NCBI RefSeq assembly: GCF_010093205.1
Contig: NZ_PDWN01000017.1
Span: forward strand, 1-64,000
Direction: 5' to 3'
DNA: 64,000 nt
Source of the DNA: Pseudoxanthomonas daejeonensis
GTDB lineage: Bacteria > Pseudomonadota > Gammaproteobacteria > Xanthomonadales > Xanthomonadaceae
Shown one piece after another: positions 11,581 to 26,814 of this stretch (positions are counted from its first letter, which is position 1; each line of letters opens with the position of its first letter). Position numbers and translations under genes: made by a program. The notes under the pieces are model-generated. The model saw only the letters and a list, made by a program, of their open reading frames with translations. It was not told the origin of the DNA and did no database searches.

Positions 11581-12118
11581 GAGCGGGCAAGACCGCGACA
11601 CCGACGCCGTAGCGCAGGCGACGCCCCCGCGATTCCGGCGGCGTCGGTGTCGCGGCCTGAAGTCCGCTCCTACAAGGGCGCGTGGTCTCCGCTGTCGTAG
11701 GAGCGGGCACGACCGCGACACCGACGCCGTAGCGCAGGCGACGCCCCCGCGATTCCGACAGCGTCGCGTCGCGGCCTGAAGTCCGCCCTTGCAAGGGCGC
11801 GTGGTCCCCGCTGTCGTAGGAGCGGGCACGACCGCGACACCGGCGCCATCGCGCAGGCGACGCCCCCGCGATTCCGGCGGCGTCGGTGTCGCGGCCTGAA
11901 GTCCGCTCCTACAGGGGCGCGTGGTCTCCGCTGTCGTAGGAGCGGGCACGACCGCGACACCGACGCCATCGCGCAGGCGACGCCCCCGCGATTCCGGCGG
12001 CGTCGGTGTCGCGGCCTGAAGTCCGCTCCTACAAGGGCGCGTGGTCCCCGCTGTCGTAGGAGCGGGCACGACCGCGACACCGACGCCATCGCGCAGGCGA
12101 CGCCCCCGCGATTCCGAC
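11571..12118. repeat. 120-bp tandem repeat array of inverted-repeat units, 4.5 copies
   Basis: Copies start at 11571, 11691, 11810, 11930 and 12050 (period 120, 119, 120, 120), the last cut short at about 12118. Each unit has a left arm starting GTAGGAGCGGGCACGACCG and a right arm ending GTCCGCTCCTAC that are near-complementary over about 30 bp, with a GC-rich centre. Copies differ at only a few positions. The array fills the gap between the kinase and its regulator and supplies the kinase stop codon. All reading frames across it are repetitive shadows; I see no gene. Confidence 0.95.
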
Positions 12119-22345: not shown

Positions 22346-22566
22346 CGGACCGGGTTCCTCGGCAGGGTCGGGGGGTGTCGGGCCGGCCGGGTGCGCGAAC
22401 GTGCGTGCCGGTGGCCGGTCGATCATGAAGCTGAACGAGTCTGCTGCGCGCGAATTTAACGGCTGGTGAAGTGGGTTTCGGGCACCGGCGGCCGGGGCCG
22501 TTTCAACCTCCGCCGACGGCGCCCGCGGCAGGGTCTGGAACACCGTGAGGAGCGTCACGCAAGTGG

Positions 22567-22595
22567 TTGACACTGCCGGGGACCGGGGGTAGCTT
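22567..22595 (+). promoter_or_regulatory. Candidate sigma-70 promoter of nrdJa
   Basis: A perfect -35 TTGACA (22567-22572) is followed after 17 bp by a weak -10 TAGCTT (22590-22595, matching TATAAT at 3 of 6 bases). It would start transcription near 22602 and give a leader of about 270 nt. Just downstream, CCACTAGATGTTGCGG (22610-22625) loosely resembles an NrdR box, but no second box at the usual spacing was found. Confidence 0.45.
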
Positions 22596-22652
22596 GACGG
22601 CCTGTTGCGCCACTAGATGTTGCGGTGCGACGGAATCCAGGCCCAAGCGATG

Positions 22653-22745
22653 GTGTTTTCCTGAACACGCCTCGCCAAGCCCAATCGCCGGGGGGTGGCG
22701 AGCGGATGCAGCAGGAAAACACAGTCGGAAACGGCCTTTCAGGCC
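22653..22745 (+). ncRNA. Structured 5' leader of nrdJa with alternative folds
   Basis: A perfect 11-bp long-range stem joins GTGTTTTCCTG (22653-22663) to CAGGAAAACAC (22712-22722). It encloses a second stem CTCGCCA (22671-22677) / TGGCGAG (22696-22702), extended by a CCC/GGG pairing. The left strand can instead fold locally as GTGTT-TTCCTG-AACAC (22653-22668), which excludes the long stem. A third hairpin GGCCT-TTC-AGGCC follows at 22733-22745. Mutually exclusive folds suggest a cis-regulatory RNA. An nrdJ RNA motif is, from memory, described in Rfam; I could not test the match. The usual B12-riboswitch core was not recognised. Confidence 0.6.
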
Positions 22746-22871
22746 ATAAGGAACCCACCGTCTGACCCGGCGAGCGGCGCGTACCCACGCGACCCGCCGG
22801 CCTTGCCGTCCCCGTTCCATCCGTCCCTCCGGGCTATGAGATCCAGCTGCGGTAAAGGAGAAACCAACAGC

Positions 22872-25028
22872 ATGAGCACGGTGCGCCTCGAAGTGGTCCA
22901 GGACAACACCAAAGCCAGCGGCGAAATTCCGCTGCAGCCCGCCTCCCAGGACATCTGGGACAAGAAGTACCGCCTGAAGACCAAGCAGGGCGTTCCGCTG
23001 GATGCCGACATCGACGGCACCTACCAGCGCGTGGCCCGGGCCCTGGCCGACGCCGAGGGTACCGACGAGAAGAAGGCCTACTGGTACGAGCGATTCGTCT
23101 GGGCGCTGCGCCGCGGCGCGATCCCGGCCGGCCGCATCACCTCCAACGCCGGCGCGCTCGAGCACAAGCCGGCGACCAGCACGATCAACTGCACCGTGTC
23201 GGGCACGATCACCGACTCGATGGACGGCATCCTGGAGAAGGTCCACGAGGCCGGCCTGACCCTGAAGGCCGGTTGCGGCATCGGCTACGAATTCTCGACG
23301 CTGCGTCCGCGCGGCGCGTTCGTCGCCGGCGCCGGCGCGTACACCTCCGGCCCGATGTCCTTCATGGATATCTACGACAAGATGTGTTTTACCGTCTCCA
23401 GCGCCGGCGGCCGCCGTGGCGCGCAGATGGGCACGTTCGACGTCAGCCACCCGGACGTGAAGGACTTCATCCGCGCCAAGCGCGAAGACGGCCGCCTGCG
23501 CCAGTTCAACCTGTCCCTGCTGATCACCGACGGCTTCATGAAGGCCGTGGCCGACGATGACGACTGGCCGCTGGTGTTCCCGGTCAGCGCCAAGGAGCAG
23601 GGCGACTTCGACCTGGCCGACGCCGACAAGGTGGTCTGGCGCGACTGGCCGACCCACGTCAACTACGTCACCCGCGACGACGGCCTGGTGGCCTGCAAGG
23701 TGTACGGGCACATCCGCGCCCGCCACCTGTGGGACATGATCATGGTCTCCACCTACGACTTCGCCGAGCCGGGGTTCATCCTGATCGACAAGGTCAACGA
23801 GATGAACAACAACTGGTGGTGCGAGAACATCCGCGCGACCAACCCGTGCGGCGAGCAGCCGCTGCCGCCGTACGGCGCCTGCCTGCTGGGCTCGGTCAAC
23901 CTGACCACCTTCGTGCGCGACCCGTTCACCGACAAGGCGCGCTTCGACTGGGAGGAATACAAGGAAGTCGTGCGCGTGTTCACCCGCATGCTCGACAACG
24001 TAGTCGAAGTGAACGGCCTGCCCCTGCAGCAGCAGCGCGACGAGATCATGCGCAAGCGCCGCCACGGCATGGGCTTCCTGGGCCTGGGCAGCACCCTGAC
24101 CATGCTCAAGATGAAGTACGGCTCGCCGGAAAGCCTGGAGTTCACCGAGCAGGTGTCGCGCGACATGGCCGTGGCCGGCTGGGAAGTGGGCCTGTCGCTG
24201 GCCATCGAGAAGGGCGCCGCCCCGATCATGGAAGAGCGCTTCGAGGTCACCGCGCAGATGCTGCGCCAGCGCCCGGAAATGGCGAAGGACGGCTGGCGCC
24301 TGGGCCAGGAAATCCCCGGCAAGGTGCTGCACGCCCGCTACAGCCGCTACATGCAGCGCATCGCGTCGGTGGCGCCGGAGCTGGTGGACGAGCTGGCCGA
24401 AGTCGGTTCGCGCTTCACCCACCACAGCTCGATCGCCCCGACCGGCACCATCTCCCTGTCGCTGGCCAACAACGCCTCCAACGGCATCGAGCCGTCGTTC
24501 GCGCACCACTACAGCCGCAATGTGATCCGCGAAGGCAAGAAGTCCAAGGAAAAGGTCGACGTCTACAGCTACGAGCTGCTGGCCTACCGCCACCTGGTCA
24601 ACGCCAAGGCGATGCCGTTCTCCGAAGCTGCCGACGCGCAGCTGCCGGAGTACTTCATCTCCGCCGACGACATCCATCCCAAGGAGCACGTCGACGTGCA
24701 GGCCGCCGCCCAGAAGTGGGTGGACAGCTCGATCTCCAAGACCGCGAACGTCCCGACCGACTACCCGTACGAGGACTTCAAGGACATCTACCGCTACGCC
24801 TACGAGCAGGGCCTGAAGGGTTGCACCACGTTCCGCTTCAACCCGGCCGCCTTCCAGGGCGTGCTGGTCAAGGAGAAGGACCTGGAGAACACCACCTACC
24901 GCTTCGAGCTGGAAGACGGCTCGGTGATGGAGGTCAAGGGCAACGAAGAGATCGAGTACGACGGCGAGACCCACACCGCCGCCAACCTCTTCGATGCGCT
25001 CAAGGAAGGGTATTACGGCAAGTTCTGA
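22872..25028 (+). CDS. nrdJ: Class II adenosylcobalamin-dependent ribonucleotide reductase, catalytic subunit NrdJa
   Basis: A 718-aa catalytic half of a B12-dependent ribonucleotide reductase, which makes dNTP precursors with or without oxygen. The active-site triad N324-C326-E328 in [10 protein letters not shown] carries the thiyl radical cysteine. C107 (TINCTVSG) and C337 (11 residues after C326) form the redox pair expected for class II enzymes. The ATG at 22872 lies 11 bases after AAAGGAG. The chain ends at LKEGYYGKF without the C-terminal cysteine tail; that tail is on NrdJb, encoded 985 bp downstream, a split known from Pseudomonas. A long structured leader precedes the gene. Confidence 0.94.
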
Positions 25029-25158
25029 TGCTTGCCAGGGTCGCGGCGCGCGCTTCTTCCGGGCGCCCGCCGCGGCCGGTTCCTCGCAGCACGGCGCCCG
25101 GAATGCAGGTGAAGTTGTCCCGATTACCACACAGAGAGCGCCCCCAGGAGGGCTCCCC

Positions 25159-25920
25159 ATGAGCAATGGCAATGGTGTGACGGCGACCCTCTCCGAGGCC
25201 GCCGAGTCCGTGAAAGAGAAAGCGGCCGAAGTCGGCCACGCGATCAGTGCCACCGCCAGTGGCGCGGTCGCCAGCGCCGGCAAGAGCGTGACCAAGGCGA
25301 AGAAGGCCGCCAAGAAGACCGTGACCAAGGCCAGGAAGGCGGCCAAGAAGACCGTCGCCAAGGCCACCAAGGCGGTGAAGAAGGAAAGCGCCAAGGTGAC
25401 CAAGGCGGTGACCAAGACGATGTCCAAGGCCAAGAAGAAGCTGACCGCCGCCAAGGACAAGGCCACCGCCGAAGCCGACGCGCTGCGCAAGAAGCTGGGC
25501 AAGAAGAAGCCGGCCAAGAAGGCAGCTGCCAAGAAGGGTGCAGCCAAGAAGACCGCGAAGAAGGCTGCCGCCAAGAAGGCTGCACCGAAGAAGGCCGCGG
25601 CCAAGAAGGCGGCAGTGAAGAAGGCGCCGGCCAAGAAGGTCGCTGCGAAGAAGGCTGCGCCGAAGAAGGCCGCCGCCAAGAAGGCCGCCGCCAAGAAGGC
25701 AGTGAAGAAGGCCGCGCCGAAGAAGGCCGTCGCCAGGAAGGCCCCGGCGAAGAAGGCTGCGCCGAAGAAGGCCGCCGCCAGGAAGGCAGTGAAGAAGGCC
25801 GCGCCGAAGAAGGCCGTGGCCAAGAAGGCGCCGGCGAAGAAGGCCGCCCCGAAGAAGGCTGCCGCCAAGCGCGCGCCGGCCAGGAAGGCGCCGGCCAAGA
25901 AGGCCGCCAAGAAGAAGTAA
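25159..25920 (+). CDS. Histone H1-like / AlgP-like Lys-Ala repeat protein
   Basis: A 253-aa highly basic protein. An N-terminal helical segment (about 1-50, [20 protein letters not shown]) is followed by about 110 residues of helical Lys-rich sequence. From about residue 115 to the end it is almost pure [17 protein letters not shown] repeats. Such tails bind DNA non-specifically, as in HC1, AlgP and eukaryotic H1; the copy number is probably unstable. The ATG at 25159 has AGGAGG seven bases upstream. Its position between the two halves of the reductase is unusual. A role in nucleoid packaging or dNTP/DNA coupling is only inference. Confidence 0.85.
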
Positions 25921-26013: not shown

Positions 26014-26814
26014 ATGGCCGTCAAGATCGACAAGAAAATCAAGGGTTACGCCGTGCTTACCGCCGAAGACAAGGCGCGCGAATCCGCGCCGCCGGTGGTC
26101 GCCGCGCCGGTGGACCGGGCCGTGATGGAGGCCGAGGCCGCCAAGGACAACATCATCCACATGCACGAGCGCATCGAGCGCCCGGAAGTGCTGATCGGCA
26201 GCACCTACAAGATCAAGTCGCCGATGGTCGAGCACGCCATGTACGTGACCATCAACGACATCGTCCTCAACGCCGGCACCGAGCACGAGCTGCGCCGCCC
26301 GTTCGAGGTGTTCATCAATTCCAAGTCGATGGAACACTTCCAGTGGATCGTCGGCCTGACCCGGATCATGTCGGCCGTGTTCCGCAAGGGCGGCGACGTC
26401 ACCTTCCTGGTGGAAGAGATGAAGGCCGTGTTCGACCCGCGCGGCGGCTACTTCAAGGCCGGCGGCGTGTACATGCCCTCGCTGGTCGCCGAGATCGGCG
26501 CGGTGGTCGAGGAGCACATGAAGTCGATCGGCCTGATCATCGACCCGGAGATGAGCGCGCACCAGAAGGCGCTGATCGCCGAGAAGCGCAAGCAGTTCGA
26601 AGACCGCTCAAAAAAAAAGAGTGACCTGATCCCGGCGGGCGTTGCTGCCCAAGCGGGCGCCGCGAGCGCCGGCACCGAAGACATCGCCGTCACCGGCGAC
26701 GGCACCAGCTTCCCGCCCAGCGCCACCATGTGCCACAAGTGCAGCACCAAGGCGCTGGTGATCATGGACGGGTGCGCGACTTGCTTGAATTGTGGGTATA
26801 GCAAGTGCGGGTGA
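26014..26814 (+). CDS. Class II ribonucleotide reductase accessory subunit NrdJb (C-terminal redox tail)
   Basis: A 266-aa second half of the split B12-dependent reductase. The first ~200 residues resemble the C-terminal domain of one-chain NrdJ (RPFEVFINSKSMEHFQWIVG). The tail holds six cysteines: C240/C243, C254/C257, and C260/C265 in a CxxxxC spacing like the swinging redox pair of class II enzymes that relays electrons from thioredoxin. AGGA lies eight bases before the ATG. An A9 tract at 26610-26618 contains a slippery heptamer; a -1 shift there would end the protein at about residue 203 without any cysteine. An intrinsic terminator follows. Confidence 0.88.
   Translation: MAVKIDKKIKGYAVLTAEDKARESAPPVVAAPVDRAVMEAEAAKDNIIHMHERIERPEVLIGSTYKIKSPMVEHAMYVTINDIVLNAGTEHELRRPFEVFINSKSMEHFQWIVGLTRIMSAVFRKGGDVTFLVEEMKAVFDPRGGYFKAGGVYMPSLVAEIGAVVEEHMKSIGLIIDPEMSAHQKALIAEKRKQFEDRSKKKSDLIPAGVAAQAGAASAGTEDIAVTGDGTSFPPSATMCHKCSTKALVIMDGCATCLNCGYSKCG
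26613..26619 (+). other. dnaX-like slippery heptamer inside nrdJb
   Basis: In zero frame the codons run TCA AAA AAA AAG AGT GAC, so the heptamer A AAA AAG sits in exactly the frame used in E. coli dnaX. The next bases, AGTGA, match those of dnaX as I recall it. A tandem -1 slip gives Glu then TGA (26622-26624). The total run is nine A (26610-26618), also long enough for RNA-polymerase slippage. A possible downstream stem CCGGCG (26632-26637) / CGCCGG (26667-26672) starts 12 nt after the heptamer. No clear internal Shine-Dalgarno was seen upstream. Confidence 0.6.

What the first reader, a model, noticed from the sequence alone, without database searches (positions are those of the whole stretch)
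22653..22745. Mutually exclusive hairpins in the nrdJa leader: candidate regulatory RNA
GTGTTTTCCTG (22653-22663) can pair over 48 nt with CAGGAAAACAC (22712-22722), closing a second 7-bp stem, or fold locally with AACAC (22664-22668). The two folds exclude each other, as in riboswitches and attenuators. The element sits about 150 nt before the start codon of the B12-dependent reductase. It does not look like a standard cobalamin riboswitch, so the ligand could be a nucleotide, cobalamin derivative or protein.
Basis: partly seen in the sequence, partly recalled or inferred. Interest (0 to 1): 0.7.

Follow-up and report, generated by a model that had tools for sequence, protein, structure and literature searches.

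The report
Repressor site beside conserved leader hairpins
The long inverted repeat is real, but its switch-like pairing is not kept in related species: its first arm begins inside a probable site for the known nucleotide-sensing repressor NrdR, while a different set of hairpins in the same leader of the B12-dependent ribonucleotide reductase gene is conserved in the genus and matches no known RNA family.

Summary
The 11-bp inverted repeat (22653-22663/22712-22722) and the local alternative exist as described. The proposed switch is not supported: over 16 congeneric nrdJ leaders the long-range stem shows no covariation (75.4% of cells paired, 75.8% after shuffling), and its predicted pairing probability is 1.00 in the window and 0.00 in the 15 others, sister species included.

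Two other things are there. First, a conserved promoter, then tandem NrdR boxes (22610-22625, 22641-22656; box 2 degenerate) 31 bp apart; the repeat starts at the key G of box 2, and nrdR is in the genome. That points to ordinary dATP/ATP-sensing repression. A 19-codon frame keeps start and stop in 15 of 16 species, without peptide conservation. No Rfam family matches.

A cobalamin riboswitch sits at nrdAB, the other reductase. Verdict: partly supported; an undescribed genus-level leader element of modest interest.

The parts
22567..22595 (+). Putative promoter: TTGACA (22567-22572), 17 nt, TAGCTT (22590-22595)
   Evidence: 11 or 12 of 12 bases kept in 15 of 16 congeners (L096 8 of 12), 9 or more of 12 in 69 of 76 wider loci (the words were taken from the window). 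The generic sigma-70 scan did not report it (0 found).
22610..22625 (.). NrdR box 1, key bases C22613 and G22622
   Evidence: Found in 76 of 80 wider nrdJ loci by a consensus score, which favours the invariant positions; contacts as published.
22641..22656 (.).
   Evidence: Offset 31 fits in 16 of 16 congeners, a neighbouring offset fits as well in each; score on the box 1 matrix only -6.8.
22653..22663 (+).
   Evidence: Present; pairing with the right arm not conserved.
22712..22722 (+).
   Evidence: Alignment A1.
22647..22675 (+). Hairpin P1: 22647-22652 with 22670-22675 and 22653-22657 with 22664-22668
   Evidence: Covariation above shuffles and repeated independent changes on the nrdJ tree; weakened in the window itself.
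22685..22701 (+). Hairpin P2 with G-rich loop
   Evidence: Conserved, 92.5% of cells paired, no double changes.
22706..22765 (+). Candidate upstream frame, 19 codons (ATG to TGA)
   Evidence: 18 or 19 codons in 15 of 16 congeners; codon test negative.
22722..22764 (+). Helix P3 (22722-22728 with 22758-22764) enclosing hairpin P3b (22731-22736 with 22742-22747)
   Evidence: P3b 94.7% of cells paired, 4 pairs with double changes; P3 weak, 74.1%.
22774..22797 (+). Hairpin P4
   Evidence: 93.4% of cells paired, no double changes.
22854..22860 (+). Ribosome-binding site of nrdJ (AAAGGAG)
   Evidence: Located; GGA at 22857 kept in 16 of 16.
22872..25028 (+). nrdJ, B12-dependent ribonucleotide reductase, catalytic part
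   Evidence: TIGR02504, 580.9 bits, cut-off 399.95.

Best explanation
The site is the transcription start region of nrdJ, with two layers. Layer 1 (supported by conservation, not by experiment here): a promoter followed by two NrdR boxes three DNA turns apart, on which an NrdR tetramer loaded with dATP and ATP would block transcription of nrdJ when dNTPs are plentiful. Layer 2 (structure partly supported by covariation, function inferred): the transcript made when NrdR is off carries a genus-specific leader of hairpins P1 to P4 and possibly a short translated frame between P2 and P4; most likely it tunes how much nrdJ mRNA is completed or translated, by translation-coupled or Rho-type attenuation. 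The 11-bp long-range pairing is a by-product in this one species: box 2 fixes GTGT, a conserved stretch after P2 fixes most of CAGGAAAAC, and drifting bases in the P1 loop complete the match.
For: Long-range stem without covariation and predicted only in the window (1.00 against 0.00 in 15 of 15). Local structure above all 500 shuffles on 4 of 5 measures; P1 with repeated independent compensations on the nrdJ tree. P1 lower stem predicted at 0.5 or more in 12 of 15 congeners. NrdR box 1 in 76 of 80 loci, exact spacing, contacts as published, spacers of 14-17 bp are bound (here 15), nrdR gene at 194 bits. Leader element found in the genus only, once per genome, at nrdJ. No intrinsic terminator, C-rich tail after P4.
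Against: NrdR binding is not measured and box 2 is degenerate (-6.8 on the box 1 matrix). The generic promoter scan found none. In the window itself the long-range fold is predicted to win over P1, P2 and P3, so a species-specific switch is not excluded. Predicted folds of single congeners mostly do not show P2 and P3. The uORF codon test is negative. The covariation shuffles do not correct for relatedness; only the tree counts address that. Layer 2 has no functional evidence.
Confidence: 0.68

Rival explanations
1. One reading: a two-state RNA switch or attenuator in which the 11-bp long-range stem and the local hairpin exclude each other under control of a ligand.
For: Both folds are possible in the window; the 106-nt stretch is unusually stable, the AT-rich 11-bp repeat is unexpected by composition. 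L085 can form all 11 pairs with G-U.
Against: No covariation, predicted in 1 of 16 species, sister species L083 keeps 8 of 11 pairs, no Rfam match.
Confidence: 0.07
2. A leader-peptide attenuator: the 19-codon uORF is translated, and ribosome position decides whether P3/P4 or a Rho site acts on transcription into nrdJ.
For: Start and stop kept at 18 or 19 codons in 15 of 16 congeners, the two length changes are of 3 nt; anti-SD pairing of -10 kcal/mol or better before the frame in 12 of 16, of which 10 beat at least 96% of shuffles; C-rich tail after P4.
Against: No codon-level selection: window against 14 congeners 0-2 synonymous and 7-15 non-synonymous codons, z 0.39 (the positive control had modest power, z -1.26 to 3.18 in 8 windows). 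L096 has no ATG there although it is among the 12 with a strong SD; 4 of 16 have only -6.2 kcal/mol.
Confidence: 0.25
3. A CsrA/RsmA-regulated leader: conserved GGA motifs at 22704 and 22714 and the nrdJ SD at 22857 are bound by CsrA.
For: Those three GGA are kept in 16, 15 and 16 of 16 leaders (window included), the other two in 5 of 16 each; a csrA gene is present, 93.1 bits.
Against: They lie in broadly conserved sequence (34 of 228 trinucleotides kept in 15 or more), GGA is not enriched (5 against 4.2 by shuffling), and one is simply the SD. The CsrA motif is recalled, from no call.
Confidence: 0.12

Closest known systems
Tandem NrdR boxes of RNR promoters (Streptomyces coelicolor nrdRJ; PMC9110341, passages seen)
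   Same: Two boxes with the key G-C pairs 31 bp apart, next to a class II reductase gene, nrdR in the genome.
   Different: Box 2 is degenerate, and both boxes lie just downstream of the putative -10 element; binding untested here.
nrdJ RNA motif, Rfam RF03034 (listed at nrdJ of Streptomyces lividans; PMC8079986, passage seen)
   Same: A candidate RNA in front of nrdJ.
   Different: Best own-genome score 15.3 bits against 40.3 needed, on another contig; nothing at this locus.
Cobalamin riboswitch RF00174
   Same: Sits at a ribonucleotide reductase operon of this very genome.
   Different: It is at nrdAB and at one other place, not at nrdJ.
5'UTR feedback control of methionine synthesis in Xanthomonas campestris (PMC6230763, title and abstract start seen)
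   Same: A regulatory leader RNA in a related bacterium (family relation recalled).
   Different: Other gene and other signal; sequences not compared.

Membership tests
NrdR operator | Palindromic 16-bp box with conserved C and G nine bases apart near the promoter | tested here: met
   Box 1, 76 of 80 loci.
NrdR operator | Second box about three helix turns away, spacer 14-17 bp | tested here: met
   Offset 31 fits in 16 of 16 congeners; with the best of five offsets C and G are kept in 73 of 76 wider loci. Spacing rule from passages. The box 2 sequence itself is degenerate (-6.8).
NrdR operator | nrdR gene in the same genome | tested here: met
   TIGR00244, 194 bits, cut-off 124.65.
NrdR operator | Binding and repression by dATP/ATP-loaded NrdR | not testable with these tools
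   Needs a binding assay.
Cobalamin riboswitch RF00174 | Match to the covariance model at the nrdJ leader | tested here: not met
   0 at gathering in the window, 0 at E<=10 in 22480-22900; the two genome copies are elsewhere.
nrdJ RNA motif RF03034 | Match to the covariance model at the nrdJ leader | tested here: not met
   Local helix yes, long-range helix no.
   No data.
Leader-peptide attenuator | Short translated frame with conserved start and stop | tested here: inconclusive
   Frame kept in 15 of 16, no codon signature.
Leader-peptide attenuator | Intrinsic terminator in the leader | tested here: not met
   0 found in 22450-22900; Rho-dependent termination was not testable.

The most novel reading that the evidence does not exclude
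A new class of cis-regulatory RNA, limited to one genus of Lysobacteraceae, controls a B12-dependent ribonucleotide reductase after transcription starts: hairpins P1 to P4 with a short translated frame, stacked under NrdR control, giving this reductase a second sensor (of dNTP pools, cobalamin or translation state).
Probability: 0.13. Interest if true: 0.62.

Novelty: new member of a known kind. Interest (0 to 1): 0.35.

Why it matters
The genome suggests how two reductases share labour: the B12-independent nrdAB behind a cobalamin riboswitch, the B12-dependent nrdJ behind NrdR boxes and an undescribed leader RNA. If the leader regulates nrdJ, it would add a post-initiation layer to dNTP supply. 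For the finding itself the main value is the correction: a perfect inverted repeat in an operator-bearing leader can arise from two unrelated conserved stretches, and comparison with congeners exposes that.

Tried and rejected
Rfam scans of the window, of the leader at E<=10, of 20 of the 80 family loci and of five weak model hits gave nothing. A family-wide hairpin with box 2 as its 5' arm was tested in 74 of 80 loci and not found (mean z -0.31, 8% at p<=0.05); of its controls, box 1 as arm gave a lower mean z (-0.86), a downstream arm 0.13. A P2-like hairpin with a GGGG loop before an ATG occurs in 16 of 71 wider leaders tested (9 of 80 skipped) against 5.4 expected, many of them in close relatives, so only a weak trace. 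Model R1 gave 11 matches at E<=1 in the 80 loci, of which six lie in nrdJ leaders (L004, L003, L012, L014, L054, L034), the last four weak, E 5e-4 to 0.86. The five non-genus R1 matches at about 29 bits lie in DNA without an nrdJ match; four are copies of one stretch, 99-100% identical, transposase-like by eye, the fifth aminotransferase-like by eye (no family search was made). NrdR boxes at nrdAB: only a weak match, 6.5 on the box 1 matrix, left open. One search tested the uORF one base out of frame; one search replaces it. Notes written give the uORF start one or two bases off; 22706-22765 is right. Literature: searches (8 of 12 listed) list no paper that by its title is about this leader; they cover only the held open library.

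Full report
What was claimed and what is there. The 11-bp inverted repeat and its local alternative are in the sequence at the stated places. The gene downstream is the B12-dependent reductase nrdJ (TIGR02504, 580.9 bits). The stretch 22645-22750 folds better than 200 of 200 shuffles (z -4.51); the longer leader 22601-22875 is less striking (z -1.80).

Relatives. A search of 17 genomes of the same genus found a full nrdJ match in 15 and one in pieces (G011), own included; G007 has only a distant match of 28% identity, like the class I matches of the others. Eighty further nrdJ loci came from named genomes; two of them, L003 and L004, are probably the same records as L086 and L091 of the genus set. 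The window and 15 congeneric leaders were aligned.

The long-range stem. With G-U allowed, all 11 pairs are possible in 2 of 16 leaders (window, L085); the sister species L083 keeps 8, the others 4 to 9. Across the alignment 75.4% of cells pair against 75.8% after shuffling, and the covariation score is 0.118 against 0.123. Predicted mean pairing probability is 1.00 in the window and 0.00 in each of the 15 others. The stem is therefore not a conserved switch. How it may have arisen: box 2 fixes GTGT, a conserved stretch after P2 fixes most of CAGGAAAAC, and the loop bases between them drift (inference).

The local structure. A structure of five helices pairs in 87.7% of cells against 86.0% shuffled (0 of 500 as high), with 7 pairs changed on both sides (0 of 500); the fifth measure, further pair types, was reached by 31 and 29 of 500. 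On a tree of nrdJ the pair at columns 8/48 changes about four times on each side, C-G to U-A, and the outer pair 1/56 is A-U in three separate lineages. P3b has four pairs with double changes. P2 and P4 are conserved but nearly invariant, so covariation neither supports nor refutes them; P3 is weak at 74.1% of cells. Against this: folds of single leaders mostly prefer other pairings for P2 and P3, z-scores of the 16 run from 0.32 to -3.00, and in the window P1 itself loses to the long-range fold; in the congeners the lower stem of P1 has a probability of 0.5 or more in 12 of 15.

Distribution. A covariance model of the element (R1) matched 21 of 297 family genomes (strict filters): 16 in the genus, which are the sequences it was built from, each once and just before nrdJ, and five weak matches in DNA without nrdJ. 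Among the 80 nrdJ loci it strongly matched the two congeners, L012 at E 5e-4, and three more leaders at E 0.3 to 0.86, among 11 matches in all. The element is thus genus-level, with faint traces outside.

The NrdR operator. Upstream lies TTGACA-17-TAGCTT, kept at 11 or 12 of 12 bases in 15 of 16 congeners, though the generic promoter scan did not report it. Then comes box 1 at 22610-22625, found in 76 of 80 wider loci with seven positions the same in all 76; the score used to find it favours these positions. The published S. coelicolor structure puts the key GC pairs at 9 and 18 and at 40 and 49, with two boxes about three turns apart (PMC9110341, passages); spacers of 14-17 bp are bound well (PMC12051234, passages). 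Box 2 keeps C and G at offset 31 in 16 of 16 congeners (a neighbouring offset fits too) and, with the best of five offsets, in 73 of 76 wider loci, which inflates that count; otherwise it diverges and scores -6.8 on the box 1 matrix against 21.4 for box 1. The genome has nrdR.

The short frame. ATG 22706 to TGA 22765 gives 18 or 19 codons in 15 of 16 leaders; L096 lacks this ATG, though by eye a GTG lies in frame. The two length differences are of 3 nt. Anti-SD pairing before the frame is -10 kcal/mol or better in 12 of 16, L096 among them, and -6.2 in 4. Codon-level conservation is absent (z 0.39; 0-2 synonymous against 7-15 non-synonymous codons; control windows of nrdJ z -1.26 to 3.18). A translated frame with an unconstrained peptide is possible; a conserved peptide is not supported.

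Regulatory setting. The class I operon nrdAB of this genome carries a cobalamin riboswitch (107.7 bits) that abuts the start of the longest nrdA frame, overlapping it by 5 nt, and a second copy lies elsewhere. The actinobacterial nrdJ RNA (RF03034; seen in passages of PMC8079986 and PMC8388888) does not match. So B12 sensing is on the alternative reductase, and nucleotide sensing by NrdR is probably on nrdJ.

Mechanism. Shown by conservation: promoter words, NrdR box 1 and its spacing to box 2, leader hairpins P1 and P3b. Inferred: NrdR repression; post-initiation tuning by the leader through translation-coupled or Rho-type attenuation (no intrinsic terminator; C-rich tail), with CsrA as another candidate. 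The long-range stem may still form in this one species, but it cannot be the conserved function.

Noticed in passing
window 22872-25028 and 26014-26814: The B12-dependent reductase looks split: the catalytic part and a 266-aa second frame that matches positions 582-759 of a NrdJ model (49.8 bits, below that model's cut-off) are separated by a lysine/alanine-rich frame, histone H1-like by eye (24994-25920).
   Followed up: partly
L136:6730-6955 (G000:C11:277229-277454, minus strand): A cobalamin riboswitch sits at the start of the class I nrdA-nrdB operon, so B12 probably turns off the B12-independent reductase.
   Followed up: partly
L138:956-1196 (G000:C22:266455-266695): A second cobalamin riboswitch; its downstream gene was not examined.
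   Followed up: no
L097, L099 (G011:C1:488363-490483): In one congener nrdJ is read in several pieces, which suggests frame breaks, in an assembly rated 57% complete.
   Followed up: no
window 11593-12087: Inverted repeats that recur: arms CCGCGACACCG at 11593, 11832 and 11952, steps of 239 and 120 bp.
   Followed up: no
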